A DNA stretch of 50,647 nt from Lachnospiraceae bacterium (GTDB lineage Bacteria; Bacillota; Clostridia; Lachnospirales; Lachnospiraceae). The notes beneath the pieces were generated by a model. The model saw only the letters and a list, made by a program, of their open reading frames with translations, made no database searches and had not been told where the DNA came from. Location: NCBI GenBank assembly GCA_017634065.1, contig JAGBOC010000026.1:1-50647 (forward strand). Reading direction: 5' to 3'. The position numbers were made by a program, and so were the translations under genes. Shown one piece after another: positions 27,153-50,359 of this stretch. How positions within the stretch are numbered: position 1 is the stretch's first letter; each line of letters starts with the position of its first letter.

Positions 27153-27164
27153 AGAATCCTTTCG

Positions 27165-27291
27165 GGCTCGCAGTGCTCGCCCCTACAAAGGCTCACAGTG
27201 CTCGCCCCTACAAAGGCTCACAGTGCTCACCCCTACAAGGCTATCGCAGTGCTCGCCCCTATAAGGCTACCGCAGTGCTCGCCCCTACAAA
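27165..27291. repeat. Five tandem copies of a 24-27 bp hairpin repeat between dapB and dapA
   Basis: Units are 27165-27189, 27190-27214, 27215-27238, 27239-27264 and 27265-27291. Read on minus, each begins TTTGTAGGGGCGAGCACTGC and ends GAGCC, with small changes. The core GGGC-GA-GC-act-GC-GA-GCCC can fold into a hairpin with two adjacent G-A mismatches. The same unit occurs at 42266, 44484 and 48544 in the variable-protein array. Here it lies within the lysine operon transcript. Confidence 0.85.
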
Positions 27292-29896: not shown

Positions 29897-29917
29897 AAAT
29901 ATTAATAACAGTGTTAA

Positions 29918-30078
29918 ATTATGATAGCCCTCCGCGATATTCGCGACAGTGTTCATGATATTCTCGTGAACCCCATAGATACTAGGTGCCCCTATGTATC
30001 TATTCGGCGGTTTGACCTTGGTTTCAGATGCCTCTTTTATTAAAACCTATATTCGCACCGCGCCTCTACCTATTAATG
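29918..30078 (-). ncRNA. Lysine riboswitch (L-box)
   Basis: The reverse complement contains the L-box core in order: GGTAGAGGCGCGGTGCGAA (5' arm with the conserved GAGGxGC), AAGAGGCATCTGAA, AAGGTCAAACCGCCGAA (conserved GCCGAA), a hairpin with GGGG loop, and GAACACTGTCGCG with the closing GGAGGGCTATCAT. P1 arms are near 30072 and 29921. Lysine binding should favour the downstream terminator and shut off the transporter and dapA-dapB-ddh. Confidence 0.95.
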
Positions 30079-35936: not shown

Positions 35937-37196
35937 ATGAGAGAGAATAAATATATAGAATTAAAAGAGAAAATGACAGATACCTTTTTAAAGACGGTTA
36001 GCGCTTATGCAAATTATGGAACAGGTATCATTATTTTTGGTGTAAGAGATGATGGTAAAGAAATAGGTGTGGAAGACCCTAAAAACTTTTGTGCTGCGAT
36101 AGAGAATAAAATTAATGATACAATAGTGCCGATTCCTGATTACTCTTTAGAGGTAGACGATAAGAACAAAATAGTCACATTAAAAGTTTACAAAGGAATG
36201 AAACAACCATACTTTTATAAATCTAAAGCATACAAGAGAAATGATGCTTCGACAAGAGAAATTGATAATATTGAATTGAAAAGATTGATACTTGAAGGAG
36301 AAAATATAACTTATGATAGAATTATAACTAAGAATCAAGATTTACAATTTGAAGTTTTATCAAAAAAAATAATCAAAGAATTGGGAATAGAAAAGTTTTC
36401 AAATGATACTTTGATTTCGCTTGGATTGTATAATAAAAATGAAGGTTACAATATTGCTGCAGAATGTTTAGCGGATAAAAACAATTTACCAGGTATAGAT
36501 TTAGTCAGATTTGGCGAAGATATCAATACTATTTTAGATAGAAAAACAAGTGAGAACATATCAATATTGAAACAATATGATGATGCCATTGAAAAATATA
36601 AAATATATTATCAATATGAAGAAATAAAAGAAGGAAAAAGAACATTTAAAGAGAAAATACCATATAATGCATATAGAGAAGCATTAGCAAATGCGCTTGT
36701 ACACAGAACTTGGGATGTAAATAATAATATAAAAATCTCTATGTATGATAAGTATATAGAAATAATTTCTCCAGGGGGTTTGCCAAGCAATATCTCAAAA
36801 GAAGAATATTTGTATTCAGACATTTCTGAACTTAGGAATCCTATCATTGCGAATATATTTTTTAGATTGCATATGATTGAAAAGTTAGGCACGGGAATAG
36901 GAAGAATTAACAAAGAGTATGAGAATAGTTTCAATAAGCCTAAATACGAAATATTTGAAAATAGTATTAAAACCATTTTGCCAATAAAGAGCAGTATCAA
37001 AATCACAAACGATGATGAAAAAAAAGTGTATGAGACATTAAATAAAGTCAATCTTATGTCGGCAACAGAATTATCACTTGAACTTGGAATGGGAAAGACA
37101 AAAACAACTAAACTTTTAAATAGTCTTATACAACAGGGTTTTGTAAAAAGCCATGGTGTAGGAAGAAGTACTAAGTATTGTAGGGTGGAATATTAA
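35937..37196 (+). CDS. AlbA_2 (Schlafen-like) DNA-binding / HATPase-like winged-helix protein
   Basis: The 419-residue protein has an AlbA_2 domain at residues 1-100 (YIELKEK, LKTVSAYANYGTGIIIFGVRDDG, then KPYFYKSKAYKRNDASTREID). A linker follows. The HATPase_c_4 part near 240-340 contains ANALVHRTWDVNNNIKIS, IEIISPGGLP and EKLGTGIGRI. A C-terminal winged helix occupies about 360-419 (SATELSLELGMGKTKTTKLLNSLIQQGFVK). Such proteins are annotated as RecG-like or putative DNA-binding and may be transcriptional regulators or defence components. No clear Shine-Dalgarno precedes the ATG, and no earlier start is open. Confidence 0.82.
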   Translation: MRENKYIELKEKMTDTFLKTVSAYANYGTGIIIFGVRDDGKEIGVEDPKNFCAAIENKINDTIVPIPDYSLEVDDKNKIVTLKVYKGMKQPYFYKSKAYKRNDASTREIDNIELKRLILEGENITYDRIITKNQDLQFEVLSKKIIKELGIEKFSNDTLISLGLYNKNEGYNIAAECLADKNNLPGIDLVRFGEDINTILDRKTSENISILKQYDDAIEKYKIYYQYEEIKEGKRTFKEKIPYNAYREALANALVHRTWDVNNNIKISMYDKYIEIISPGGLPSNISKEEYLYSDISELRNPIIANIFFRLHMIEKLGTGIGRINKEYENSFNKPKYEIFENSIKTILPIKSSIKITNDDEKKVYETLNKVNLMSATELSLELGMGKTKTTKLLNSLIQQGFVKSHGVGRSTKYCRVEY

Positions 37197-37329
37197 ATGA
37201 ACTAGAAAGATGGTGAACAAAGAATATTTAATTCCGATAAAAGATGAAACTTTATAATAATAAGTGCTAAATAGTTTTAGAGCAGTTATAAAAGCAAATA
37301 TAACTTGGAATTAAATTAAATAAGCATAA

Positions 37330-37485
37330 GTATGCAATATTATTATAAATGGAACTATAAAAGAATATCAAGGCTGTGGCGGATCCCCTAATAATTATCA
37401 TGAATTTTTAGACTATATGGAAAGAAATGGGAAACCATTTAAACAAAAAATTGTGTATAAAGGGAGTAAAATAGAGTTGCCGTAA
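37330..37485 (+). pseudogene. Unidentified gene fragment without start
   Basis: A startless open frame after a TAA at 37327 encodes INGTIKEYQGCGGSPNNYHE then FLDYMERNGKPFKQKIVYKG and ends at 37485. It looks like the C-terminal end of a protein whose upstream part is lost. I do not recognise the family. The rest of 37197-37528 shows no gene, only A/T-rich sequence. Confidence 0.3.
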
Positions 37486-37528
37486 TAAAAATAATTAATA
37501 TAAATATTATTATATGAGGAGAACAATT

Positions 37529-39484
37529 ATGGGCATTAGTGCACAAGCAAAAAAAATTGAAGAATATTTTAAGTTAGAGCCAAACGAATATTTTAATATT
37601 CCAAAATATCAAAGAGCTTATAAATGGGGAAAAGATGAATGCGATAGATTATGGAATGATATTACTGATTATATTAAACTAAATTATAATGAGAACTATT
37701 TTTTTGGCTCTGTTATTATAGATCAAAAAGAAGATGGAAATGTAAGAAATTTGATAGATGGTCAGCAAAGAACAACAACCTTTTTGTTATTATTAAAAGC
37801 GTTACTAATAATAGTTAATGATAAATTAACAAAACTATTTGGTGTTAATGCACAAGGTGTAGATGAAGTAAGAAGAGGGCTACAGGAAATAAGAAAAAGT
37901 ATAATGATTATTCTATATCAGGTTCCAGCAAAGCAAATAGAGGTTGAAAAAGTAAGTGATTTTGTTAATTTAGATAAACCGATAATTGCTAATTGTAATA
38001 TATTAAAAAATGAATCAATAAATGAACAATATTGTGATGAATTATTAATAATTCTCAAAAGTTATGATTATGAAGAAGTTAAGAATAGAACGACAGTAAT
38101 TAAATATAAGAAAGGCGACAACAGATATACAAATTATTTTAGAAATTTTAAATTTTTTTATGAAAAGTTAAAGGATTTAGATGCGGGAGTATTACTTGAA
38201 TTCTCAGAAGGCTTTATGTGTAAATGCGAAATTTTGAAAATTAGGAGTACTAATGAGGAACAAGCTATTACGATGTTTAATTCGTTAAATTCAGCTGGAA
38301 TGCCATTGAATGATGCAGATATAATTTCTGCCATGTTGTCAAATGAAGCTATTAAAAATAATTACTATAATGATTTTAATATGAAATGGCAGAACCTTAT
38401 TAAACGAGTTGAGAATTTGGAAAAACTAAATATAGGAAATATTGATACAATATTGATGCAATATATGTATTTTTTAAGAACAATTAATGGTGAAACTAGA
38501 ACAAGTAGTGGTGGTGTAGATGTAACGACACCTGGAGTAAAGTACTATTTTATGACGTTAAATAATAAATTTACTCAAATTTCAAAAATTGGTAATTATA
38601 ATAAAACTAACCCTGTAAGCAAAAATCCAATATCTTTTGTTGATGACTTATTGTATTTGGTTGAAATGTGGTCGAGAGTGTATGAACTGCCATTGGCAAA
38701 AGTTCTTTTTAAGTTTAATCAGAACTTTAAACTTTTTTTAGCTAGTTATTTATTTAGATATAGAAATCAGTATACGAGTATTATAGGGCAATCTACTAAT
38801 GAAGAAAACTCGCTAGATAAACTATTTAAAGACCAACACTTTGTAGATAATTTGAATAAAATTATAAGTAGTCTGTTAAAACTATTTGTAATTCTTGAAT
38901 TAGTTGATATAGGATATTCAAGTAGTAAATTTAAGACATTTTTGTTTGAAGAAGAGATGAAATTAGTTGATATAAATATATCTGAATCAATAATTGAAAC
39001 TGATTTCAAAAATCATATCGCTGTAAACTGGGGAAACAATGTAAACGCTTTAAAACAATATATTACTGAGTATAAAGGTGGTTCAATAGTTTATCTAAAT
39101 GAGTATTTATTTGATAAACAACGATTTAATATATATGATAGATGTGATATTGAACATATAATGCCAGATAGTGGAAGAAATATAAAATCCATTCAAAATG
39201 ATGCTGGAATATCTAATAAAGAGGAATTTGAAGAATATGTAAATAAAGTTGGGAATAAAATATTATTAGAATCAGAAATCAATAGAGGGATAGGAAATGA
39301 TTGGTTTAGAAATAAATTATTAAAATATAATAATAGTAATTACTTGATGGCGAAGGATTTGTTCAATAAAAATAATCTGTCAAATAATAATCAAGGAAAT
39401 AGTAAGCCTGAATGGAAAAAAATTGATATTGAAAATGCAACAAATAATGCAGCAGATAGAATGGCAGATTATATATTTTCATAA
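37529..39484 (+). CDS. DUF262-DUF1524 protein (GmrSD-like type IV restriction nuclease)
   Basis: The 651-residue fusion has an N-terminal DUF262 (ParB-like) with NIPKYQRAYKWG (residues 23-34) and DGQQRTTT (77-84). These correspond to the NTPase-like motifs of GmrS. The C-terminal DUF1524 HNH-type region has RCDIEHIMPD with His543 and downstream LLESEIN, matching GmrD. Single-chain GmrSD enzymes restrict modified phage DNA. The frame opens at 37514, but AGGAGA 37517-37522 lies inside that extension and points to ATG 37529. The helical middle (about 180-500) is variable. Confidence 0.88.
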   Translation: MGISAQAKKIEEYFKLEPNEYFNIPKYQRAYKWGKDECDRLWNDITDYIKLNYNENYFFGSVIIDQKEDGNVRNLIDGQQRTTTFLLLLKALLIIVNDKLTKLFGVNAQGVDEVRRGLQEIRKSIMIILYQVPAKQIEVEKVSDFVNLDKPIIANCNILKNESINEQYCDELLIILKSYDYEEVKNRTTVIKYKKGDNRYTNYFRNFKFFYEKLKDLDAGVLLEFSEGFMCKCEILKIRSTNEEQAITMFNSLNSAGMPLNDADIISAMLSNEAIKNNYYNDFNMKWQNLIKRVENLEKLNIGNIDTILMQYMYFLRTINGETRTSSGGVDVTTPGVKYYFMTLNNKFTQISKIGNYNKTNPVSKNPISFVDDLLYLVEMWSRVYELPLAKVLFKFNQNFKLFLASYLFRYRNQYTSIIGQSTNEENSLDKLFKDQHFVDNLNKIISSLLKLFVILELVDIGYSSSKFKTFLFEEEMKLVDINISESIIETDFKNHIAVNWGNNVNALKQYITEYKGGSIVYLNEYLFDKQRFNIYDRCDIEHIMPDSGRNIKSIQNDAGISNKEEFEEYVNKVGNKILLESEINRGIGNDWFRNKLLKYNNSNYLMAKDLFNKNNLSNNNQGNSKPEWKKIDIENATNNAADRMADYIFS

Positions 39485-39500
39485 GGTTAAGGATAAACTG

Positions 39501-39560
39501 ATGAATATATTATTTGATATCCTAATAGTCGGCATTATACTTTTCTTTTACTTAAAGTGA
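39501..39560 (+). CDS. Possible 19-residue hydrophobic peptide
   Basis: An ATG at 39501 preceded by AAGGA (7-nt spacing) encodes MNILFDILIVGIILFFYLK and stops at TGA 39558-39560. It is almost entirely one membrane helix with a C-terminal Lys. It lies between the DUF262-DUF1524 gene and the HD-RyR gene. It could be a type I toxin-like or small regulatory membrane peptide, or a chance ORF in A/T-rich DNA. Confidence 0.35.
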   Translation: MNILFDILIVGIILFFYLK

Positions 39561-39625
39561 AACAAGGATACCGAAAGTATTTGAATTAATTTATATAATT
39601 ATTTTAGTAGTGGAGATTATATAAT

Positions 39626-41869
39626 ATGTCATATTCTTATTTAGATAGTAATAGGTTAAGGGATTTGGAGAGCATAAAAATGAAGTTTGGAGAAAACTCT
39701 TTTGAGTTTTCTGCTGTTGATTTTATTAGAAATAAATGCGAAAAACTAAGATTTGATATTTCTAAAGAGAATGAGAAAGATAATCCTAAATCATATACTG
39801 GTAAATGCACGAAAGTCGGTCAGATCCCATTCAATATGGAAAAAGACCTCGATAGATATACTTTAGAAAACTCTATAATTAACTTTTTATATACAGGCAA
39901 TAAAGAAGACGCCTACAATATTTTCTATTGTTTCCTTGAGATGTTTATAGGTGATTATAGTAGAACTGAAAGTATGGTGGAACTTCTATCTGAATATGAG
40001 TCAAATGGCAGTAGACTTCTTATGAAGCATAGAGATCATTATTCGCATAGTGCATTTGTATTTATATTAGGACTTGCTATCTATAATTCAAATAAGTTCT
40101 TCCGTGATACATATAATAGTTTTTATAAGGTGAGTGGCAATGTGGCAGACAATCATTTCTTGGAATACTGGGGTCTAACATCATTATTTCACGACATAGG
40201 TTATCCTTTTGAACTTCCATTTGAGCAACTTGAATCATATTTTGAAGTTGATAATAAAAAAAGAAAAGATGCACCATTTTTGTCATATTCAAACCTAAAT
40301 AATCTCATAAAAATTGATAGAAAAATAGCACGAAGAATAAATGATATTTATAAAGATGATATATTTGCTGTATTTGAAAATACGAATGAACTTTTTGCTT
40401 ATGCCATAACTGATAGACTTGCGAAAACATATTATTTTACAAAAGAGCAAATGACAAGAATACTATCAAGAAAACCTTGTAATCCCGATGAGTACAATTA
40501 CTATATGGATCATGCATATTTTAGTGCAAACTTAGTATTTCAAAAACTATTTGCTAACATAGAGGATACATCTAAGTTTACAATAGAACATATAGATGCA
40601 ATGACAGCTATAATATTACATAATAGTCTTTATAAGTTCAGCGTGGCTGATTATAATGACCCTGAGATAAACATACCATTAAAGCCAGATTTACACCCTT
40701 TGGCATACTTGCTTATGCTATGTGATGAAATGCAATGTTGGGATAGAACTGCATATGGTAGAGTTTCAACAAAAGAGTTGCATCCTGTAGATGTTAATAT
40801 CACTTTTGATGAAGATAGAATTAATGCTTCCTACATATTTGACTTTAATAAAAGTAAGAAAAAAATTGATGAATATAAAGAAAAATATGTTGAATGGTTA
40901 AATAAGAAACCAAGTGATAAAGAAAAAGATGAAATTGATAATAAGGGTAAAACTACAATAGAAAATTGGTATGATAGTAGACCAAAACTTAAATCTTTTG
41001 CTTCTTTTTATGAAGGAAGTTTAGGATTGGATTTAGATGAAAAGATAGAAAGATTTAATACAAGAAAACACATTTTTATCAAAGAAAAAAATAAGTTTCA
41101 AAGTGATATAGAAAGAATTATTGATACTGATAGAATTAAAATTAATGTGTTAATAGAAAATGAGAGCAAGTCAAGTGAAATAATTGACAGTTTTAATGAA
41201 TATTCTTCAGGATATCTTTCTGATAGCAATTTTACAAATATGAATAATTTTGCTGAAATACTTAATTATGTTTACTCGATAAAAGAAGAAGAAATAGAAA
41301 CTTTTCTTGATAAGATAAATGATAAGAATACATTGTTGGACATTGAAAATAAGTTTAAAGGTTTATCACTTGAATATAAAATGTTTAACATAAATAAAGC
41401 AAAAGCATTTCCGGGTTTTTTAGAAAAAGTAAATTGCTTTTATACAAATAAAACTGTATCTAATAGTGAAGTTCAAAGTTTTTATGATGATGAGATAAAG
41501 AAAATTGCAATTTTGTCTCACAGAAGATGGCTCATAGAGAAATATCAAATGGGGTGGAGATATGGCAATCCAAAAGATTCTATAGAAAAGTATTGTAGCA
41601 GACTTCACGATGAACTTATAGAAAATTATGAGTTTAATTCATATGAAGATGTATATGGTAATAGAAGAAAAGAGTTTAACGAAAAAGTAAAAATCAATTA
41701 TAATAGATTGCTTAAAGACCCAAATATTAATTATAAGAATAGAGAATTAAAACATATTAACTTAATTATACCGCTCCTTAAACTATATGAAGGTGTAGGA
41801 ATATACTGTCTTAAAAAAAGAGGAAAAGATAATTATATTGATGAAATTGAGGATAGTTTATTGAATTAA
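39626..41869 (+). CDS. HD phosphohydrolase-like protein with C-terminal RyR-like domain
   Basis: In this 747-residue protein, residues 130-380 carry an HD-domain pattern: His138/His141 (HRDHYSHS), His189-Asp190 (SLFHDIGYPFE), His296 (DHAYFSA), His332 (IILHNSL) and Asp367 (LMLCDEM). The metal-binding set H-HD-H-H-D appears complete. A charged helical middle follows (about 400-600). The end (about 625-747) has SHRRWLIEKYQMGWRYGN and later ELKHINLIIPLLKLYEGVGIYCLKK, matching the RyR (ryanodine receptor) domain pattern W...GWxYG...R...IP.LL...G. It may hydrolyse or sense a nucleotide as part of antiphage defence. GGAG lies 10 nt before the ATG. Fusion of these two parts is uncommon. Confidence 0.68.
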   Translation: MSYSYLDSNRLRDLESIKMKFGENSFEFSAVDFIRNKCEKLRFDISKENEKDNPKSYTGKCTKVGQIPFNMEKDLDRYTLENSIINFLYTGNKEDAYNIFYCFLEMFIGDYSRTESMVELLSEYESNGSRLLMKHRDHYSHSAFVFILGLAIYNSNKFFRDTYNSFYKVSGNVADNHFLEYWGLTSLFHDIGYPFELPFEQLESYFEVDNKKRKDAPFLSYSNLNNLIKIDRKIARRINDIYKDDIFAVFENTNELFAYAITDRLAKTYYFTKEQMTRILSRKPCNPDEYNYYMDHAYFSANLVFQKLFANIEDTSKFTIEHIDAMTAIILHNSLYKFSVADYNDPEINIPLKPDLHPLAYLLMLCDEMQCWDRTAYGRVSTKELHPVDVNITFDEDRINASYIFDFNKSKKKIDEYKEKYVEWLNKKPSDKEKDEIDNKGKTTIENWYDSRPKLKSFASFYEGSLGLDLDEKIERFNTRKHIFIKEKNKFQSDIERIIDTDRIKINVLIENESKSSEIIDSFNEYSSGYLSDSNFTNMNNFAEILNYVYSIKEEEIETFLDKINDKNTLLDIENKFKGLSLEYKMFNINKAKAFPGFLEKVNCFYTNKTVSNSEVQSFYDDEIKKIAILSHRRWLIEKYQMGWRYGNPKDSIEKYCSRLHDELIENYEFNSYEDVYGNRRKEFNEKVKINYNRLLKDPNINYKNRELKHINLIIPLLKLYEGVGIYCLKKRGKDNYIDEIEDSLLN

Positions 41870-42030: not shown

Positions 42031-42088
42031 GAACCCCCTATGCCAACCCCCTATCTTTTTAAATTTGTAGGTGGTTGGTACTGGGGAG
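42031..42088 (+). promoter_or_regulatory. Conserved structured element, copy 1
   Basis: The 58-nt element is repeated before all four array genes. It can fold as CCCC (42035-42038), TATG, CCAACC (42043-42048), CCTA (42050-42053), loop of about 14 nt, TAGG (42068-42071), GGTTGG (42073-42078), TACT, GGGG (42083-42086). The TATG/TACT faces form a symmetrical internal loop. It lies 225 bp before the first array gene. It could be a cis-acting RNA or a DNA-level operator. Confidence 0.75.
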
Positions 42089-42265
42089 CATCGCGTTCGC
42101 CGGATTTCGCTATCGTGGAACCGCGAAATCGCGATTCCACTAACGCTTCATCGGCTCCGCTCTTCAAAAAATGCTAAAAAGAAGCATTTTTTGAGATTGC
42201 TAGGGTAGGCAAGAGAGCGTTTGAAACAGTGAATTAGTATAAAGGGGCATCTGTAGGAGAGTAGC
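42089..42265. repeat. GC-rich insert with nested inverted repeats (copy 1 spacer)
   Basis: This spacer is richer in G+C than its surroundings in its first half. It holds GTGGAA-CCGCG...CGCG-ATTCCAC (42115-42140) and a perfect 11-bp stem CAAAAAATGCT / AGCATTTTTTG (42165-42193). It has no convincing ORF. It separates the conserved element from the hairpin repeat at 42266. It is absent before array gene 3. Confidence 0.55.
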
Positions 42266-42290
42266 TTGTAGGGGCGAGCATTGCGAGCCC
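42266..42290 (+). repeat. Hairpin repeat (dap-operon type)
   Basis: TTGTAGGGGCGAGCATTGCG followed by AGCCC, the same unit as in the tandem block at 27165-27291. It is placed 22 bp before the first array gene start. Confidence 0.8.
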
Positions 42291-42312
42291 GTAGGTCGTA
42301 AGATACACATTT

Positions 42313-43875
42313 ATGAGAAAAAGCACAAGAATAGTAAAAAGAGCCTTGGCACTATTTTTAATTGTGCTTATGAGTATAGAGAACTTTGCTGCCGTAGTCA
42401 GCGACAACGACGGAGCAGCGTTTATAACTAAGGCGGAGTTTGATAGTTTGAAAAATAACTTTCAGGCTCAGATAGATCAGTATAATACTTCTATAGATAG
42501 TAAGATAGATGGGGCAATAGCGAGTTATCTTGCGGGAATAAATCTCACAAAAGTTAGTATATTAACAAATGAATTAAAAAAAGCTGAAGAAGATAGTGTT
42601 AATAATGTTACATTTCAATATTGGAATACACCTGTGGCAACATCAGATGTGCCAGATGTGCGTGCTGGATTTTTCTTAAGTGCTAACTTCGGATGTGGGT
42701 ATCATGTGCAGGGTACGCGGACTGTTCATGGTTATCATATTGTAAGTAATGTTAATGCTGGCGGTGCTTTCAACTGGTCGTATTATCCAGATGGAAGTAC
42801 AGAAAATCCAAACTACACTTCTTCTTATTATTGGTCGAAGTTACCTTTTGCGAAATTTGATGATGTCGGAACAGTGACTGCTGGTAATAGTGATCCCTGG
42901 GTACTTGATAATCTTGCTCGACATCGATTAAAAATTTCACTAAAAACAGTTAGTAATTCTTTCGGTGAGAGTCCGCAAAATGTGGTTTGGCCGACCGGCA
43001 TTACTCATGTGACAGGAAATGTAGTAACTGACTTTAGTACACGCTCTGAAACAATGAATGGTCCTGGTGTATTTGATTGGACTTCGACATTCAACTTAGT
43101 TGGATATTCTGCCAGACCTGAATCTACAATATCACACATATGGTCATATAATGACCTGTCTGGCGATGAGGCTAACAACGAATTTTTAAAATACCAATTG
43201 TCTGGTACGATTCCGGATACCTACACTGATACTGTCGTTTTTGACTATAGAGATGTTTATAGTTCATTAAATCAAAAAAATTACACAATAGAAACAAGTA
43301 CGACATCAAAAGGTTCGACTATTTCAGTTTTTAACCGCCAATCTGATGGAAGTGATATTTCTTGGTATACTGTCGCTGGTCAGCCTCGTATTAACACTGG
43401 TGCCACTTTTATATGGACTTGGAATCAGCAGATTGTGCGACAACAGAAGTGGTCCAATTTAACAACTCAGTATTGGAACAATAGATTTAATATACCTTTT
43501 TATAAATATTATGGAATACCAATTTGCAAAACTGAAAATAAGCCAGGAAAACTTAAATTTAAATTAAAAATCACTAATTCAAGAACTGATGGAAATACAG
43601 ATCCATTAAAATATATTTTCAGAATTATGGATCGACCTTTCCCAAATTCGGGTGTCCCTGATTCACTTATTGAAGATGGTGTTGAGCGTGTTTTGTATAA
43701 AAAAAGAGTGGACCCAGGAGTTGAAGTATATGAAACAGATATAGAAATTGATAAAGAAAAGATATGGAATACTTCTGATGGTGATTATATTTATATAAAA
43801 CCTGAACACAATACATTATATCAGCGATTAAAGATAGAAGTAGTTGGAGATATAAAATATGAAGTTGAAAGTTAA
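42313..43875 (+). CDS. Variable secreted protein, array gene 1
   Basis: The 520-residue protein has a signal peptide (MRKSTRIVKRALALFLIVLM, cleavage likely after NFAA). A helical segment shared by all four paralogues follows (AFITKAEFDSLKNNFQAQID to GAIASYLAGI, residues 36-76). After residue 78 the sequence is unique: Trp/Tyr/Asn-rich and beta-rich. The end, IYIKPEHNTLYQRLKIEVVG, resembles the last strands of the paralogues. There is no wall anchor, catalytic motif or membrane helix beyond the signal. No normal Shine-Dalgarno precedes the ATG; the leader GTAGGTCGTAAGAT is conserved instead. Likely surface or secreted; function unknown. Confidence 0.82.
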   Translation: MRKSTRIVKRALALFLIVLMSIENFAAVVSDNDGAAFITKAEFDSLKNNFQAQIDQYNTSIDSKIDGAIASYLAGINLTKVSILTNELKKAEEDSVNNVTFQYWNTPVATSDVPDVRAGFFLSANFGCGYHVQGTRTVHGYHIVSNVNAGGAFNWSYYPDGSTENPNYTSSYYWSKLPFAKFDDVGTVTAGNSDPWVLDNLARHRLKISLKTVSNSFGESPQNVVWPTGITHVTGNVVTDFSTRSETMNGPGVFDWTSTFNLVGYSARPESTISHIWSYNDLSGDEANNEFLKYQLSGTIPDTYTDTVVFDYRDVYSSLNQKNYTIETSTTSKGSTISVFNRQSDGSDISWYTVAGQPRINTGATFIWTWNQQIVRQQKWSNLTTQYWNNRFNIPFYKYYGIPICKTENKPGKLKFKLKITNSRTDGNTDPLKYIFRIMDRPFPNSGVPDSLIEDGVERVLYKKRVDPGVEVYETDIEIDKEKIWNTSDGDYIYIKPEHNTLYQRLKIEVVGDIKYEVES

Positions 43876-44010
43876 CAGATAGTTCATTTTCATATCGTTC
43901 GTATGTTGTGAAAATTATATTAAATTAACAGGAACTGTAAAATTATTTTCAAGTATTGCACCATTCATAGCATCATTTAGTAAGACTACTGGACTACTTC
44001 GCCTTGTAAT

Positions 44011-44100
44011 ATGTTTAAGAAAGGTATCATCAAAATAACTGATGCAGCGAAAGAACTTGGTGTTAGTGAAAAAGAATTTATGAAACTTATTAAGGCATAA
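44011..44100 (+). pseudogene. Small fragment resembling the C-terminus of an Rpn-type protein
   Basis: The short open frame MFKKGIIKITDAAKELGVSE / KEFMKLIKA ends at TAA 44098-44100. The GIIKIxDAAKELGxSEEEF pattern is typical of the helix-turn-helix-like C-terminal tail of Rpn/PD-(D/E)XK transposase-like proteins. Nothing of the nuclease remains, so it is a decayed remnant. The preceding 43876-44010 shows no gene. Confidence 0.45.
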
Positions 44101-44116
44101 TCATTAGCGTAATATG

Positions 44117-44145
44117 AATGTAGGGGAAAGAACCCTGCATTTTTA
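44117..44145 (+). terminator. Terminator preceding array gene 2 module
   Basis: ATGTAGGG 44118-44125 pairs with CCCTGCAT 44133-44140 (one T-G), followed by a T-run. The GxAGGG/CCCTGx core recurs before array genes 3 and 4. Confidence 0.75.
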
Positions 44146-44211
44146 TTTGCGTTAATTCGCTACATGAATATATTTATGCTTAATATGTCTACTTTTTGAA
44201 GTCTATTCATT

Positions 44212-44269
44212 AACCCCCCTATGCTAACCCCCTAACTTTTTAGATTTGTAGGTGGTTGGTACTGGGGAG
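44212..44269 (+). promoter_or_regulatory. Conserved structured element, copy 2
   Basis: Same fold as copy 1 with loop changes (CTAACTTTTTAGATTTG). The stem arm reads CTAACC instead of CCAACC and still pairs with GGTTGG through a T-G pair. It is followed by TACTGGGGAG as in the other copies. It lies 265 bp before the gene 2 start. Confidence 0.75.
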
Positions 44270-44483
44270 GTGCGAACACCGCGAACCCGAACGTAGGTAG
44301 ATGTTGTACTTGCGAACGTATTTTGTGAGCCTAGTACAACACTATGCCAGATTTCCGTGAAGATGCGAAGCATCTGAACGCTTTTCGGAAATCGGCTGGC
44401 GAGCACGCGCCCGAGCGTTTTTTCCGAGCGTAGCGAAGGAAGTGCGACAAAGCACCCTTGGGGTGCGAACCCGAGTGGTAGAG
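44270..44483. repeat. GC-rich insert with nested inverted repeats (copy 2 spacer)
   Basis: Clearly GC-richer than its surroundings. Visible pairings: GTTGTACT 44303-44310 with AGTACAAC 44333-44340; a cruciform-like nest GCCAG-ATTTCCG (44346-44357), AGATGC/GCATCT (44361-44375), CGGAAAT and CTGGC (44386-44400); and GCACCC/GGGTGC near 44450-44466. It looks like a structured mobile or regulatory DNA insert, not a gene. Confidence 0.6.
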
Positions 44484-44505
44484 TAGGGGCGAGCACTGCG
44501 AGCCC
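44484..44505 (+). repeat. Hairpin repeat (dap-operon type)
   Basis: TAGGGGCGAGCACTGCGAGC followed by CC, identical in its core to units of the dap tandem block. It lies 28 bp before array gene 2. Confidence 0.8.
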
Positions 44506-44533
44506 TAACTAAATAGGTCGTAAGTCATAAATT

Positions 44534-46285
44534 ATGAGAAAAAGCACAAGAATAGTTAAGAGATTATTAGCACTATTTTTAGTTGTGCTTATGAGTATAA
44601 ATACATTTGGAGCGGTGGTTGGTGACAATGATGGTTCGGCCTTCATCACGAAAGCAGAATTTGATTCACTTAAAAATGATTTCCAAAGTCAAATTGACAA
44701 TTATAATACGAGTATTGATAGTAAGATAGATGGTGCGATAGCATCATATTTATCTGGAATACAAGTTGCAAAGGAAACCCAAGCCAAATGTCCAGTTACG
44801 AATTATGAAGATATGAAATGGGTTAAAAAATGGTTTATAAAAGGCGATTACATAAAATGGGTTGATGATACCGCTGCTAATACTGTAAAAGAAACTGACG
44901 TATGGTTTGAACCAGTTTGGAATACTTTATTTGGTTTTAGAAATCGTGATTTTTCAATAAATGTGAGTGGTGGACGTGGAAACTATACATTGTGGTCAAT
45001 TTATTTGGGGGGTAAATGGTATGTTGAGGATAATCAAACGGTATCAATCCTAAATACTGTCGAGAGACAAAATGGAACACCGGCTGCTGCTTATTTGGAC
45101 TGCAAATATGATACAGTAAAAGATGTGATTGTTTTAACAGATACTGATGTTCTTGGTTGGTTTGATTGTGCTATTGAAAGATATTTTGGTGGGTTCATAC
45201 AATTAAATCCTTACTCGTCAACTGATGGTGGAACAACTTGGAGTGGACCAGGTGGCCAAGGCCAACCTATAAGGCCTTTACCTGATACACATGCGATGGT
45301 TGGTGATTGGTTGAAATTCAATGAACTATCTGATAATGAGGTCTTAAACTTAGAGGTTCTCCTTGAGGGGGCTGGTACAAATCAAGTATATAAGGTGCCA
45401 ATATCATATAAATATTGGGAAATGGCTTTTAACATAGTGTGGTGGGCACAGCAGTGGACGAAAAATGGACCTCATGGGCCAAATCTTTCACCAAGAAATT
45501 TAAATAGTTGTTCGCCTGGTGTTTGGACTAAAAATCCAACAGGCTTATATAACTGGGGAACTGATAACGATGTTGCGATAAATCAAATTAAACATTTGGC
45601 GCTATCTTCAGATGATGAAAAAATTGTAAATATTAGAAGACACCACGACTATAGAACAGTTGGCTCAAATGAATCGTTTGAAGTAAGAAATGACTTGTCT
45701 GAATCATTTGATTTTTATGTACGCGTATCAACATGTGCTGCAAATGCTATGAGAGATTGGACAATTAATGACCATAATTGGGCTGTACCTTATTCTGAAA
45801 GTAATATAAAAACAATGAAGGTAAAACTTTATTATCCAGAAAAAATTGATTTGCGAAAGATTTCAAATGGTAGTTTTTATAATGGAGAAGTTCCTTTGAA
45901 GATTGGTGAGGGGTTACCGTTGATAAGTACTTTAGGGAAGAATGAAGGATTTGTAATTGAATTCGATTATGAGTTTAGTCGTCCTTGGGATACTGTTCCT
46001 TCAACTGCTACGACGGAAGGAATTAGAGTAGATATTAAAAAAAGTAATTATTTGAATAGTACAAATGATTATTATAGTGGTACTATCAATGATGGAACTT
46101 CAGTTACTACTTTGAAAAATGCATTAAGCAATAAAACATCTAATCACTGCATTATTACGGTGGATAAGGAAAACATAACAAGCAGAACCGATACTGATGG
46201 TGTTTGGTTGAGAATAAAGCCAGAAGATGACACAGAAGGATTGGCAGTAAGTATAAAGAATTTAAAAATTAAAACAGTTGCATAA
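44534..46285 (+). CDS. Variable secreted protein, array gene 2
   Basis: The 583-residue protein has the shared cap: MRKSTRIVKRLLALFLVVLM, cleavage after TFGA, then AFITKAEFDSLKNDFQSQID to GAIASYLSGI. The rest (80-583) is unlike the other three: Trp-rich with Asn/Asp-rich loops. A long Gly/Pro stretch occurs near residue 235 (GGTTWSGPGGQGQPIRPLP). The end VWLRIKPEDDTEGLAVSIKN parallels the ends of genes 1 and 3. Leader TAGGTCGTAAGTCATAAATT, no normal Shine-Dalgarno. Function unknown. Confidence 0.82.
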   Translation: MRKSTRIVKRLLALFLVVLMSINTFGAVVGDNDGSAFITKAEFDSLKNDFQSQIDNYNTSIDSKIDGAIASYLSGIQVAKETQAKCPVTNYEDMKWVKKWFIKGDYIKWVDDTAANTVKETDVWFEPVWNTLFGFRNRDFSINVSGGRGNYTLWSIYLGGKWYVEDNQTVSILNTVERQNGTPAAAYLDCKYDTVKDVIVLTDTDVLGWFDCAIERYFGGFIQLNPYSSTDGGTTWSGPGGQGQPIRPLPDTHAMVGDWLKFNELSDNEVLNLEVLLEGAGTNQVYKVPISYKYWEMAFNIVWWAQQWTKNGPHGPNLSPRNLNSCSPGVWTKNPTGLYNWGTDNDVAINQIKHLALSSDDEKIVNIRRHHDYRTVGSNESFEVRNDLSESFDFYVRVSTCAANAMRDWTINDHNWAVPYSESNIKTMKVKLYYPEKIDLRKISNGSFYNGEVPLKIGEGLPLISTLGKNEGFVIEFDYEFSRPWDTVPSTATTEGIRVDIKKSNYLNSTNDYYSGTINDGTSVTTLKNALSNKTSNHCIITVDKENITSRTDTDGVWLRIKPEDDTEGLAVSIKNLKIKTVA

Positions 46286-46352
46286 ATGGATATGAAAAAA
46301 TGTGATGTAGCTGAATAGTTTTTAAGTCTAGGGTGTGTATTATAAACTTTAA

Positions 46353-46700
46353 TTTATTAGTAGAAATTATATATTGGGAATTGCCAATAGAGACTTAGGA
46401 AGGATACTTGAAAACATAGTATATCTTGAACTATTGAGAAGAGAGTATAAAGTATATATTGGTAAAATGGGTGACACAGAAATTGATTTTGTAGCAGAAA
46501 AGTCAGGTATAAAAAAGTATTATCAAGTAGCGAGTTCGGTTCTTGATGAGAATACTTTTTTAAGAGAAATAAGGCCGTTAAAAATGATTAAAGATAATTA
46601 TGAAAAATATATAATATCATATGATAAAATGCCAACTACAGATAGTGATGGAATTAAGGTGATAAATGTAATAGATTTTTTACTAGAAAATAGCATTTAA
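46353..46700 (+). pseudogene. 5'-truncated ATPase fragment (DUF4143 end of an AAA_14-type protein)
   Basis: An open frame without an ATG encodes IANRDLGRILENIVYLELLR, then VYIGKMGDTEIDFVAEKSGI, YYQVASSVLDENTFLREI and KVINVIDFLLENS. This is the C-terminal DUF4143 part of bacterial AAA_14/DUF4143 ATPases (DxGRxxENIVYLELxRRGYxVYxGK, E-DFVA). The ATPase half is missing. The fragment keeps an intact frame to its natural end. It lies between array genes 2 and 3. Confidence 0.75.
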
Positions 46701-46737
46701 TTTTCATCATAATTATTGACAATGGTTTTTTAAATAT

Positions 46738-46766
46738 TGCAGGGCAAATGATGGCCCTGTATTTTA
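46738..46766 (+). terminator. Terminator preceding array gene 3 module
   Basis: TGCAGGGC 46738-46745 pairs with GCCCTGTA 46754-46761 (one G-T), loop 8 nt, short T-run TTTTATT after. Confidence 0.75.
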
Positions 46767-46822
46767 TTGTGTTTGTAAGAAATACATTTATGTAAAATTT
46801 GCCTAGATTTTTAAAGTTTGGC

Positions 46823-46879
46823 GAACCCCCTATGCCAACCCCTATCTTTTTTGATTTGTAGGTGGTTGGTACTGGGGAG
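46823..46879 (+). promoter_or_regulatory. Conserved structured element, copy 3
   Basis: Same arms as copy 1 (CCCCC, TATG, CCAACC, CCTA, TAGG, GGTTGG, TACT, GGGG), with one C lost between CCAACC and CCTA and a changed loop (TCTTTTTTGATTTG). Here the leader follows directly, with neither GC-rich insert nor hairpin repeat: 34 bp to ATG 46914. This is the minimal form of the module. Confidence 0.78.
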
Positions 46880-46913
46880 CGTCTTAACTAAATAGGTCGT
46901 AAGATACATATTT

Positions 46914-48209
46914 ATGAGAAAAAGCACAATAATAGTAAAGAGAACTTTAGCACTATTTTTAGTTGTGCTTATGAGTATAAATACAATGGGAGCAATAGTT
47001 AGTGATAATGATGGTTCAGCATTTATCACAAAAGCCGAATTTGATAGTTTAAAGAATGACTTCCAATCTCAGATTGATCAATATAACACATCAATAGATA
47101 GCAAGATTGATGGAGCCATTGCATCATATCTTGGAGGAATACAAATTGCAACAACAGAGAACATGGATTCTTTATATGATAATTCTTGGAAGTGGTCAAG
47201 TGATACCACTTATTCTTATGATAATGTATCTGACAAAAAGTTTTACTTTAACTTATTATTTTATACGCGTACTGCTGTGGATCTTAAAGATAGAACGCTC
47301 GAGCCGTACCCTGCTTTTTATTCCCACTGGTTTTTTGAACCAATTGCAAAAGCTGACCGTACATACAACACGATGGTGATTGATAATGGTCAATACAAAT
47401 ATAAGCAGCTTGTTTTCCGTTGGGAAGGTCTACTTTACTTTGGTCGTACTGGCTCCCAGGTAACTTTGGGGGGCGACTGTGGAGTTATTCAATGGTATAA
47501 CTTTTGGCCTAACTCTATGGCTGAAAAAACCACTGTTCATACGGCTATCACTCAAGGACAAATATGGTGGTATGATGGTCATAATACTTTGTATGTTGAT
47601 CAAAGCGATATTAGTTGGACGCCAATAATCGCACCAGTCTCAACAGCTGAAACATATTATTATGAGGAAAAACATGAATTGCAAAATGCCTCTGATAAAG
47701 GAGTACGAGCTACTTTGGCAAAAGGGAATATCGGTGAAAGTGGCGATCTTGATACTACATGGAGTAGATCAGATTACGTAAGTCTAACCTACTATCCGAA
47801 CCAAACTGTTTCTTTAGAATCAAATAAACACCTTAAATCTCAAGATTTGGTATTATACGATTTGAAACAAAAATCAACTTATAATGAACAACTGAAATAT
47901 GGGGTTTGCATTGGAAGTACAAATGCAAAATTTGATACAGAGGCATCTGTTGCAGTAAAATTAAAAACAAGTGTAAAGGGAGATGTTCTTATTGCACTTG
48001 GCGATTCTGCTAAGAATGCTTGGGATAATAGTAAATCATATGGTTCTAAAACACAAACAATTAACACAGCAAATACAGAAACGACTATTAATGTGCAGGT
48101 AACAAAAGATTCAAAAAATGGTTGCAAAGTTTTTTTGATTTTTAAACCGACATCAACAAGTGATTTAGGAACAGTTAATATTTCATCAATAATTTTAACA
48201 AAACAATAA
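46914..48209 (+). CDS. Variable secreted protein, array gene 3
   Basis: The 431-residue protein is the shortest of the four. Shared cap: MRKSTIIVKRTLALFLVVLM, cleavage after TMGA, AFITKAEFDSLKNDFQSQID to GAIASYLGGI. The variable part starts at about residue 79 and is aromatic-rich with Gly/Asp/Thr. Its C-terminal region (about 330-431) looks like a beta-sandwich (ASVAVKLKTSVKGDVLIALG ... KVFLIFKPTSTSDLGTVNIS). Leader AACTAAATAGGTCGTAAGAT, no normal Shine-Dalgarno. Function unknown. Confidence 0.82.
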   Translation: MRKSTIIVKRTLALFLVVLMSINTMGAIVSDNDGSAFITKAEFDSLKNDFQSQIDQYNTSIDSKIDGAIASYLGGIQIATTENMDSLYDNSWKWSSDTTYSYDNVSDKKFYFNLLFYTRTAVDLKDRTLEPYPAFYSHWFFEPIAKADRTYNTMVIDNGQYKYKQLVFRWEGLLYFGRTGSQVTLGGDCGVIQWYNFWPNSMAEKTTVHTAITQGQIWWYDGHNTLYVDQSDISWTPIIAPVSTAETYYYEEKHELQNASDKGVRATLAKGNIGESGDLDTTWSRSDYVSLTYYPNQTVSLESNKHLKSQDLVLYDLKQKSTYNEQLKYGVCIGSTNAKFDTEASVAVKLKTSVKGDVLIALGDSAKNAWDNSKSYGSKTQTINTANTETTINVQVTKDSKNGCKVFLIFKPTSTSDLGTVNISSIILTKQ

Positions 48210-48454
48210 TATTTTTGTTATATAAAATTATAAGCATAAAAAACTTGACTTTATCATAAAAAGAAACATAGTTGATGTCCCATCCCATAAATCCACTAAA
48301 GATGGGGCAGAACATTAGAAATGATGGCTACATAGTTTTAACGAGCATAAAAAACAAGCCCTCTGATTTCGTATTTTTTAATGAATAAAGAATTTCACTA
48401 AAATAGATGTATATCTAAAAAAAAAAATATATAAATAGATATTATAATGAATAT

Positions 48455-48479
48455 TGCAGGGCAAAACCCTGTATTTTTT
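48455..48479 (+). terminator. Terminator preceding array gene 4 module
   Basis: TGCAGGG 48455-48461 pairs with CCCTGTA 48467-48473, then six T. The T-run touches the next structured element (48480), so little room remains for a promoter between them. The rest of 48210-48454 is A/T-rich and holds no gene I can see; an imperfect CCCATC...GATGGGG pair lies near 48280-48306. Confidence 0.8.
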
Positions 48480-48537
48480 GAACCCCCTATGCCGACCCTC
48501 TATCTTTTTAAACTTGTAGGTGGTTGGTACTGGGGAG
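48480..48537 (+). promoter_or_regulatory. Conserved structured element, copy 4
   Basis: Same fold; the stem arm is CCGACC in place of CCAACC and still pairs with GGTTGG (G-T). The inner CTCTA replaces CCCTA. Downstream TGGTTGGTACTGGGGAGCAT matches copy 1. It lies 59 bp before ATG 48596, with the hairpin repeat between. Confidence 0.77.
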
Positions 48538-48543
48538 CATCGC

Positions 48544-48567
48544 TGTAGGGGTGAGCATTGCGAACCC
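48544..48567 (+). repeat. Hairpin repeat (dap-operon type, compensated variant)
   Basis: TGTAGGGGTGAGCATTGCGA followed by ACCC. Relative to the other copies, C to T in the 5' arm is matched by G to A in the 3' arm, keeping a base pair in the GGGC/GCCC stem (now GGGT/ACCC). Confidence 0.78.
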
Positions 48568-48595
48568 TAACTAAATAGGTCATAAGTCATAAATT

Positions 48596-50359
48596 ATGAG
48601 AAAAAGCACAAGAATAGCAAAAAGAGCCTTGGCACTAATTTTAGTTGTGCTTATGAGTATAAATACATTAGGTGCAATTGTTTCTGATAATGATGGAAGT
48701 GCCTTTATCACGAAGGCCGAGTTTGACAGTATGAAGAATGATTTCCAAAGTCAAATAGATCAATATAATACTTCAATAGATAGTAAGATTGATGGAGCGA
48801 TAGCATCATATTTGGCTGGAATACAGACTTCAAGGTTTTCAAATTTTAATTCTTTACTTGATAAAAAAATTATCTGGTTAGAAATGATTGGCAAGGATGC
48901 GGCCCTAGGTTGGTGCAGACCCGAAATGGCTGTAAGTATGTATTCTTCAGCAAATGTATGGTGGTTCCAAACTAATATTGCTTCTACGGATAGTTGGCGA
49001 GATCAAGTGAGGAACGGAACCATTATATCCTCTTGGAGTCCAAAAAATTATAGTCCGAATCAAAAAGAACTTTATACTTTTGATAAAGTGACACAAGAAA
49101 CTAATGGCAATTTTTTAAATCCTAGAAAAACAAAACGATATTTGAATGGAAATGTTTCAGTAAATCTTAATTCTATAAATGCGACTACTTCTAGATATAT
49201 GACAACTAACTGGGGTTTAGCAATGTTTGGCTTTGGGAATATAATGTATAATCAGGAAAAAACAGTGAATGGGAATATTTATGATATTTATAAGGATGTG
49301 GATTGGCAATCTGGACTTTGTTGGGGACATAAACTGGATTCAATTCCATTTAGCTATAAAGCACCAAATGCATATCCGAACAATCCGCTTCAATATGCTT
49401 ATGCTACTGCTGATGGGGAAGATGCCGCCCTAGTTTGGTCGTCGCGCCCAAATGATGGGAATCTTGTTAACTTGACAGTAGCAACAGGCTTAAATTCAAA
49501 TTATATGATGGGTGCAGCTGGGACTCACATACAAAGTAGTTTGCAATGGGTGACTAATGAAGAGAATATGTCATTACTTGGGTTAGTTGGCACAGGGGAA
49601 GATCGTCCTTTGCAGTTTTTTGATAATGAAAGTAATAATTTAAGAGTGACACATGCGAGAACTGTTAAACATATTGCAAAAGAGGATTTAAAGTATAATA
49701 TAACAGGGAGAATGTTTCTTTATGGATTTGAGCTTCCTTATAAGAACGGATGGTATGAGACAAATAAACTTTATATGGACGTAACTAATTCATATGAAAC
49801 AAAAGACATTGTGCTAGATACAGGAATAACTCCTTGGTATAATGCTGCAGATACGAAATGGCCAAACACCATTCCTTATGATTTTTTAATATCTTCGGTT
49901 TATTTTAATAAAGCTCTTGATAAGTCAAAATTAGCATATTATAATAGGGACATAATTAATGTAGATGTTTCAACAACTTTAAGTAATTATTTAAAAAATT
50001 ATTCATGGAATCGTGGTTTTCCTATGTGGGAAGTTGATGATAGCGGAATATTATCATTTGAGCCAATTTTTAAAAATACGACAGACACATATTTAGTTTG
50101 GTGCTTAAAAGGTCCATCGGATTCAAATGTACCATTTGAAACAGCTCCTACTAATTATTATAGTAAGAATAGTAAATGTACACTTACTCAAATTACTTCT
50201 GGCGATGGTAAGGGAGCAATTAAGTGTAAAAGTGGAAATAAAATAATAATAGATGATGTAAATAAAGGCGATATTGTATATTTATATTTTACAACACTAG
50301 ATGGAAAGGCTGGAGTATCGTTGAAAAATGGAATACAAGCAACTTTAGAGATTATATAA
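48596..50359 (+). CDS. Variable secreted protein, array gene 4
   Basis: The 587-residue protein has the shared cap: MRKSTRIAKRALALILVVLM, cleavage after TLGA, AFITKAEFDSMKNDFQSQID to GAIASYLAGI. The remainder is unique and rich in Trp, Tyr, Asn and Ser (for example MYSSANVWWFQTNIASTDSW). The last segment VYLYFTTLDGKAGVSLKNGI parallels the ends of the other three. There is no anchor or recognised enzyme motif. Leader TAGGTCATAAGTCATAAATT. A terminator follows at 50382-50412, closing the array. Confidence 0.82.
   Translation: MRKSTRIAKRALALILVVLMSINTLGAIVSDNDGSAFITKAEFDSMKNDFQSQIDQYNTSIDSKIDGAIASYLAGIQTSRFSNFNSLLDKKIIWLEMIGKDAALGWCRPEMAVSMYSSANVWWFQTNIASTDSWRDQVRNGTIISSWSPKNYSPNQKELYTFDKVTQETNGNFLNPRKTKRYLNGNVSVNLNSINATTSRYMTTNWGLAMFGFGNIMYNQEKTVNGNIYDIYKDVDWQSGLCWGHKLDSIPFSYKAPNAYPNNPLQYAYATADGEDAALVWSSRPNDGNLVNLTVATGLNSNYMMGAAGTHIQSSLQWVTNEENMSLLGLVGTGEDRPLQFFDNESNNLRVTHARTVKHIAKEDLKYNITGRMFLYGFELPYKNGWYETNKLYMDVTNSYETKDIVLDTGITPWYNAADTKWPNTIPYDFLISSVYFNKALDKSKLAYYNRDIINVDVSTTLSNYLKNYSWNRGFPMWEVDDSGILSFEPIFKNTTDTYLVWCLKGPSDSNVPFETAPTNYYSKNSKCTLTQITSGDGKGAIKCKSGNKIIIDDVNKGDIVYLYFTTLDGKAGVSLKNGIQATLEII

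What the first reader, a model, noticed from the sequence alone, without database searches (positions are those of the whole stretch)
42313..50359. Four tandem secreted proteins with one conserved N-terminal cap and unrelated remainders
All four proteins share about 75 residues: a signal peptide and the block FITKAEFDSLKN...SIDSKIDGAIASYL. They then diverge so far that I see no alignment until the last strands. In the block after the signal peptide, codons differ silently between copies (for example GATAGTTTG against GATTCACTT for Asp-Ser-Leu). Selection is therefore keeping the protein sequence, and it is not simply a recent DNA duplication. A fixed helical cap with exchangeable bodies suggests a common export, docking or assembly tag joined to diversified surface-exposed domains, such as adhesins, antigens or binding modules. 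I do not recognise a described family for the cap.
Basis: partly seen in the sequence, partly recalled or inferred. Interest (0 to 1): 0.88.

Follow-up and report, generated by a model that had tools for sequence, protein, structure and literature searches.

The report
Secreted protein family with pairing code
An uncultured bacterium, probably from the stomachs of ruminants, carries about fifty secreted proteins that share one short helical head and fast-changing bodies, and the head comes in matched types that appear to decide whether a protein works alone or with a partner encoded next to it.

Summary
Observation mostly confirmed: four tandem genes share a signal peptide and a 46-residue helical cap. 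They are not unrelated elsewhere: an iterated profile links all four through a C-terminal domain. They belong to a family with 52 cap matches in this 1.6-Mb genome (named relatives: Lachnospiraceae MAGs, several from ruminant forestomachs), present in 12 of 12 genus genomes searched (three only in a divergent form) and in none of the other genomes searched; no convincing Pfam, NCBIfam, PHROG or PDB match.

The new result is a pairing rule. Unsupervised clustering splits caps into alpha and beta. Of 58 tight neighbours with both caps classified and no evidence of separate operons, 57 are alpha+beta, in either order; none is beta+beta. Partners have sister bodies. Residue 67 tracks the state: Gly in 101 of 106 solo alphas, 2 of 57 paired alphas, 57 of 57 betas; supported contrasts on a body tree agree.

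Best reading: the cap is a coiled-coil assembly domain. Solo alphas (as in the window) self-associate; pairs form obligate heteromers in which each cap keeps one of two sites. It works like, but is not, mycobacterial PE/PPE. The bodies' ligand is unknown.

The parts
42313..43875 (+). Gene 1, 520 aa, solo alpha-cap secreted protein (Gly67)
42313..42402 (+). Gene 1 signal peptide (residues 1-30; cleavage before DNDG inferred by eye from V-x-S)
   Evidence: sequence
42403..42540 (+). Gene 1 cap (residues 31-76)
43162..43857 (+). Gene 1 shared C-terminal domain
   Evidence: E 1.1e-24 (in-sample)
44534..46285 (+). Gene 2, 583 aa, solo alpha-cap secreted protein (Gly67)
44624..44761 (+). Gene 2 cap
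45389..46270 (+). Gene 2 shared C-terminal domain
   Evidence: E 1.9e-20 (in-sample)
46914..48209 (+). Gene 3, 431 aa, solo alpha-cap secreted protein (Gly67)
47004..47141 (+). Gene 3 cap
47628..48200 (+). Gene 3 shared C-terminal domain
   Evidence: E 4.9e-26 (in-sample)
48596..50359 (+). Gene 4, 587 aa, solo alpha-cap secreted protein (Gly67)
48686..48823 (+). Gene 4 cap
49736..50326 (+). Gene 4 shared C-terminal domain
   Evidence: E 1.7e-14 (in-sample)
42034..42094 (+). Upstream element of gene 1 (regulatory role inferred)
44215..44269 (+). Upstream element of gene 2 (regulatory role inferred)
46826..46883 (+). Upstream element of gene 3 (regulatory role inferred)
48483..48543 (+). Upstream element of gene 4 (regulatory role inferred)
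42292..42312 (+). Conserved 5' leader motif of gene 1 (TAGGTCGTAAG...)
44514..44533 (+). Conserved 5' leader motif of gene 2
46893..46913 (+). Conserved 5' leader motif of gene 3
48576..48595 (+). 5' leader motif of gene 4, one-base variant (TAGGTCATAAG)

Best explanation
The four genes are solo members of a large, genus-specific family of secreted proteins built as signal peptide - alpha-helical cap - variable middle - C-terminal domain. The cap is most likely a coiled-coil assembly domain. SHOWN: caps come in two types; tight gene pairs are alpha+beta in either order; partners carry sister bodies; residue 67 is Gly in solo alpha and in beta but rarely in paired alpha; cap identity within pairs (median 62%) does not follow body identity. 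INFERRED: solo alphas self-associate through their caps after Sec export; each alpha+beta operon makes an obligate heteromer; alpha keeps one site (with D44, S45, N48, Q51) and beta keeps another (Gly67), so two sites that a solo cap holds together are split between partners (subfunctionalisation). The assembled caps present two or more variable bodies outside the cell. A shared upstream element and leader put the units under common control.
For: k-means with k=2 on 227 of 247 extracted caps gave alpha 163, beta 64 (the 20 dropped rows are 11 from G008/G003/G004 and 9 with gaps). Of 63 same-strand neighbours with stop-to-DNDG under 260 nt, 61 have both caps classified and 59 are alpha/beta (28 AB, 31 BA, 2 AA, 0 BB); label permutation mean 30.7, maximum 46 of 20000; re-pairing within genomes mean 32.4, maximum 49. 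The rule was noticed in the own genome; in the other seven genomes with such neighbours it holds in 48 of 49. Partners are reciprocal best body hits in their genome in 53 of 57 testable pairs; two failures are two pairs that duplicate each other, two are neighbours from different operons. Residue 67: Gly in 101/106 solo alpha, 2/57 paired alpha, 57/57 paired beta, Fisher 7e-35, not corrected for ancestry. On a tree of 124 of the 163 alpha bodies, 14 supported independent solo/paired contrasts go the predicted way in 13.9 on average and never the other way with strict labels (p 1.2e-4); 16 contrasts, 15.9, p 3e-5 with corrected labels. An earlier, smaller tree (62 rows) gave only 4 such contrasts, about 4 of 4, p 0.125. 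Alpha/beta differences and the conservation of each type show helical periodicity (p 0.0006, 0.0002, 0.0012). Partner caps covary more than within-genome re-pairings (summed mutual information 78.4 against 74.3, sd 1.4, 0 of 500), though shared ancestry could cause that.
Against: Hydrophobic periodicity of the cap alone is marginal (p 0.058, with Tyr given a core-like value by hand). The type-discriminating positions lie away from the presumed core, so they may contact a third party, not the partner. Exceptions: one genuine pair with two alpha caps (G000 C21; Gly67 + Ala67), and after looking for hidden partners 6 of 65 paired alphas carry Gly67 (by hand). Without residue 67 a cap profile tells paired from solo alpha poorly (33/57 and 100/106 correct), so the paired-alpha signature rests largely on that one position. 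In 48 of 55 pairs the cap is at least as alike as the body, so 'caps kept apart, bodies kept together' holds only for some pairs. No expression, localisation or interaction data.
Confidence: 0.6

Rival explanations
1. The caps do not touch each other; each binds a shared third component (wall, scaffold or secretion factor). Alpha and beta are two docking tags, and pairs are two-subunit complexes held by their bodies.
For: Type-discriminating positions lie on the face away from the presumed core; partner bodies are sisters and could themselves dimerise.
Against: Does not by itself explain why residue 67 of alpha differs when a beta is next door, nor why the three apparently solo betas away from contig ends all have an alpha partner.
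Confidence: 0.22
2. The two cap types only keep adjacent copies different enough to avoid deletion by homologous recombination.
For: Near-identical leaders in tandem could recombine; several own-genome contigs end at these genes; some partner bodies show conversion-like patches, up to a 92-nt identical run.
Against: Silent differences would suffice, and caps already differ silently at about as many codons as they share. Solo alpha arrays keep the same cap type a few hundred bases apart. It predicts no fixed amino-acid types shared across pairs and no rule at residue 67.
Confidence: 0.05
3. Antigen or phage-receptor variation system: the cap is a generic anchor and the repertoire, not the pairing, matters; one or few units are expressed at a time. 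(Compatible with pairing, so its odds overlap with those above.)
For: Bodies turn over fast: 34 of 48 own bodies have no full-length relative of 40% or more in the other genus genomes, while a GH77 enzyme is 63-76% identical in six of 11 of them (46% in one, no match in four). Dedicated leader and element.
Against: No switch was seen: by eye no invertible promoter or hypermutable tract stands out in the four intergenic stretches of the window, but none was searched for systematically. The same element precedes nearly all units.
Confidence: 0.3

Closest known systems
Mycobacterial PE/PPE proteins
   Same: Multigene families with a conserved N-terminal helical domain and highly variable C-terminal domains; partners, often encoded together, are secreted as heterodimers joined by the helical domains (passages of PMC7028111 seen).
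   Different: PE/PPE use type VII secretion and two different partner domains; here both partners carry variants of one cap behind what looks like a Sec signal peptide, partner bodies are sisters, and no Pfam PE/PPE match appears.
Keratin-type obligate heteropolymers (recalled, no call)
   Same: Two coiled-coil paralogue classes that assemble only as heteromers.
   Different: Here bacterial, secreted, with variable C-terminal bodies, and with solo members that keep both features.
Francisella RNA polymerase alpha1/alpha2 (title and start of abstract seen in the listing)
   Same: A subunit that is a homodimer elsewhere became a heterodimer of paralogues.
   Different: One case in a core enzyme; here the solo/paired difference recurs in 14 supported independent contrasts on a body tree.

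Membership tests
PE/PPE | PE or PPE N-terminal domain (Pfam) | tested here: not met
   No PE/PPE match for the four proteins at E<=1 or for four caps at E<=10
PE/PPE | Type VII export without a cleaved Sec signal | tested here: inconclusive
   The 50 own-genome rows printed show a leader with basic and hydrophobic parts before DNDG that looks Sec-like (by eye); no signal-peptide program was available and type VII machinery was not searched for
PE/PPE | Heterotypic gene pairs | tested here: met
   59 of 61 classified tight neighbours
Any described family in Pfam, NCBIfam or PHROGs | Score above the curated or usual cut-off | tested here: not met
   Searches (the four proteins; 37 proteins, Pfam; four caps, Pfam; 50 of 122 diverse C-terminal domains, Pfam): only isolated weak matches, best 1.4e-4 in one member (Golvesin_C). 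PADLOC was not searched
Sortase-anchored wall proteins | Sortase in the genome | tested here: not met
   PF04203 absent from the 87%-complete genome, found in 3 of 14 controls
Phage tail or receptor-binding proteins | Relatives in viral sequence | tested here: not met
   No PHROG match; no relative in viral contigs (325 pattern matches, none confirmed) or phage records
Parallel coiled coil (hendecad) | Core periodicity and oligomerisation | tested here: inconclusive
   Conservation periodicity significant, hydrophobic periodicity p 0.058; oligomerisation not testable here

The most novel reading that the evidence does not exclude
A self-contained assembly code: one 46-residue secreted cap, specified by two separable sites, has switched many times between a self-assembling form and an obligate two-gene heteromer by exchange of cap cassettes, giving the cell some forty co-regulated units that display about fifty fast-evolving bodies on a common scaffold.
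Probability: 0.35. Interest if true: 0.85.

Novelty: new variant of a known kind. Interest (0 to 1): 0.7.

Why it matters
It offers a natural, replicated experiment on how homomers become obligate heteromers, largely readable at one residue and testable with short peptides. The family also fills 4.8% of a small genome without a family match in the libraries searched, so it is probably a main interface of this genus with its surroundings. The caps could serve as small orthogonal assembly tags.

Tried and rejected
PDB searches with three profiles gave nothing credible. A mobile or phage origin found no support. A conserved RNA hairpin was considered for the upstream element: the window copies fold well (z -3.2 to -4.8), but across the 38 own-genome copies the 3' arm is nearly fixed while three bases of the 5' arm change without compensation (by eye), so I read it as DNA (promoter or operator). 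The GC-rich 20-mer near several genes is an interspersed repeat also found elsewhere in the genome and was dropped. Rfam gave only a lysine riboswitch elsewhere. Literature: (listings of an open-licence library only) showed no report of the family; some looked for analogues.

Post-hoc choices: alpha and beta were first seen by eye in the own genome, then k was set to 2. The 260-nt limit was fixed in the script with the own-genome gaps in view, and was not varied. Residue 67 was noticed by eye in the output and tested on the same data; there was no held-out set. In one search I re-examined only four of the five solo alphas without Gly and the six solo betas; one search then applied one rule (related body within 500 nt) to all 106 solo alphas, which added two Gly exceptions. 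Combined by hand: Gly in 97 of 98 solo and 6 of 65 paired alphas. Odds: I lowered the best reading from 0.62 to 0.60 after rechecking how much rests on residue 67 and that caps are the more alike part in most pairs.
Full report
What is there. Four ORFs at the end of the window (42313-50359) each start with a Sec-like leader and the same cap. The leader ends V/I-V-S/G or the like before DNDG, so the mature protein probably starts there (by eye). No Pfam, NCBIfam or PHROG family matches them.

Size and spread. The own genome (1.61 Mb, 33 contigs, 87% complete) has 52 cap matches; 49 are 189 nt or longer and lie in open frames of 414-641 aa. The family frames fetched from it add up to 78 kb, 4.8%. 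Several contigs begin or end at these genes, so the number is probably a lower bound. In a search of 60 genomes (own genome included) 12 match, all 12 of the own genus, and 0 of 48 others; three of the 12 (G003, G004, G008) carry only a divergent cap on shorter proteins. With a broader profile, 2 of 397 genomes drawn from the family match, both of the genus (only up to 14 candidates per genome were scored). Titles of named records with close caps: Lachnospiraceae or Clostridiales MAGs, among them water deer reticulum, goat reticulum and sheep omasum; RUG bins are rumen MAGs as I recall; the UBA and SRR titles name no source. That the window comes from the same habitat is an inference. Nothing was found in viral contigs, phages or plasmids.

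Bodies are mostly one family. By blastp, 48 own bodies form one group of 27, one of 9, one of 5, two of 2 and three singletons. Profile search from copy 3 reached 171 of 229 bodies, all four window proteins included, through a C-terminal domain; 55 stay unmatched at E 1e-5 with the final profile. That profile matched no reversed body; of 318 non-cap ORFs the script listed its first 12 hits, and by coordinates all 12 lie beside cap genes or at contig ends, as body remnants would. The bodies change fast: 34 of 48 own bodies lack any full-length relative at 40% identity or more in the other genus stretches, against 63-76% for GH77 in six of 11 genomes; G004 gave 46% and four gave no match.

Pairs. 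Apart from solo genes there are tight pairs, with stop-to-DNDG distances mostly 88-171 nt. I extracted 247 cap ORFs from the stretches fetched from 12 genomes; from G008, G004 and G003 only 5 of 14, 5 of 7 and 1 of 2 matches were obtained. Unsupervised clustering of the 227 caps kept gave alpha (163; FITKAEFDSLKN-FQSQI) and beta (64; FVTKAEFEALK). Of 63 tight neighbours, 28 are AB, 31 BA, 2 AA, none BB, and 2 have one unclassified member; 59 of 61 classified against a permutation maximum of 46 in 20000; outside the own genome 48 of 49. Two of the 59, and one of the two AA, are neighbours with unrelated bodies, so probably separate operons; that leaves 57 of 58, of which two could not be tested by body. 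The other AA pair is genuine (bodies 41%). Both gene orders are common, so cap type does not follow position; the signal peptide does (identity to the first-gene leader 0.56-0.57 in first genes, 0.31-0.36 in second genes). Six betas looked solo: three lie at contig ends, three have an alpha partner with an interrupted frame or wider gap.

Partners share bodies. In 53 of 57 testable pairs the partners are each other's best body hit in the genome. Over 55 verified pairs body identity is 25-77%, median 45%; cap identity is 30-78%, median 62%, and does not follow it (r 0.18); the body is more alike than the cap in 7 of 55. In one orthologous set, partners resemble each other (73% and 63%) more than their counterparts in the other species (53-56%), while other sets keep the ancestral order. 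Conversion-like patches occur, for example a 92-nt identical run in G001 C6. So the bodies of some pairs evolve in concert while their caps stay distinct.

Residue 67. Comparing solo with paired alphas, one position stands out (divergence 0.77, next 0.26): Gly in 101 of 106 solo, 2 of 57 paired, and in 57 of 57 betas. Four of the five solo exceptions turned out to be pair members; the fifth lies at a contig end. A rule applied to all 106 found two further Gly alphas with a hidden partner; their caps are true alpha. The corrected count, by hand, is 97/98 solo and 6/65 paired. On the body tree the paired state needs at least 25 (strict labels) or 27 (corrected) changes; supported contrasts that differ all go the predicted way. 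Because caps and bodies recombine, this shows that cap type follows pairing state, not body ancestry; it does not count origins of the caps.

Reading of the cap. Under an 11-residue register (a,d,e,h = 43,46,47,50 and so on), hydrophobic positions cluster on one face (centre 335 degrees) and alpha/beta differences on the far side (134 degrees). Alpha keeps D44, S45, N48 and Q51 in at least 158 of 163 caps; beta has Glu44 in 60 of 64 and varies at 45, 48 and 51, but has Gly67 in 64 of 64. The simplest model is that a solo cap has two sites, and a pair divides them. That is inference.

Regulation. The leader TAGGTCGTDAG...ATG has 27 exact genome matches, and by position all 27 sit at cap genes (control 0). 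A 61-nt element has 38 matches; 37 lie upstream of a cap gene on the same strand, the 38th (C32:167-219) faces a contig end. Related motifs recur upstream in the other genomes, less uniformly: AGGTCGT in 4-12 of 8-28 upstream stretches each (33 of 37 in the own genome), and species-specific versions of the element in part of them. Variable, often GC-rich spacers follow.

What it is like. The logic resembles PE/PPE, where conserved N-terminal helical domains pair partners with variable C-termini (passages of PMC7028111). Membership fails on the domain, and the export route looks different. I rate it a new variant of a known kind: multigene secreted families with a fixed assembly head. The pair code and its one-residue correlate are, as far as the listings can tell, unreported.

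Noticed in passing
window 5812-14433 (+): 2873-aa secreted protein, Thr-rich (12.5%), with C-terminal repeats of the WKQIDGAWYFF kind that recall a choline-binding-type wall anchor; no family search was run on it.
   Followed up: no
window 46374-46700 (+): Short ORF resembling a DUF4143 ATPase C-terminus (Pfam E 2.1e-4, below the curated cut-off) lies between two cap genes, perhaps a decayed gene.
   Followed up: partly
window 29917-30076 (-): Lysine riboswitch (Rfam RF00168).
   Followed up: no
window 35937-41869 (+): Schlafen/AlbA_2 protein and GmrSD-type restriction gene upstream of the array; the 747-aa ORF at 39626-41869 has no Pfam match.
   Followed up: no
own genome, e.g. window 42271-42290, 44486-44505, 48548-48567, 27164-27233: GC-rich 20-mer interspersed repeat, 47 copies with up to 1 mismatch, many but not all in leaders of cap genes.
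   Followed up: partly
signal-peptide codons of solo and first genes, e.g. window 42313-42402: In the own genome signal-peptide DNA is conserved at synonymous sites (several codons invariant in 34 genes) more than the cap, hinting at a nucleotide-level role or recent homogenisation; weak in G001 and G009.
   Followed up: partly
L212-L218 (G008, G004, G003): Distant genus members carry other secreted families with a related N-terminus (SDGSAFVTKAEF... or ANDSNAFVT...) and, in the five G004 proteins printed, a C-terminus ending NGEIPILNE or close to it.
   Followed up: partly
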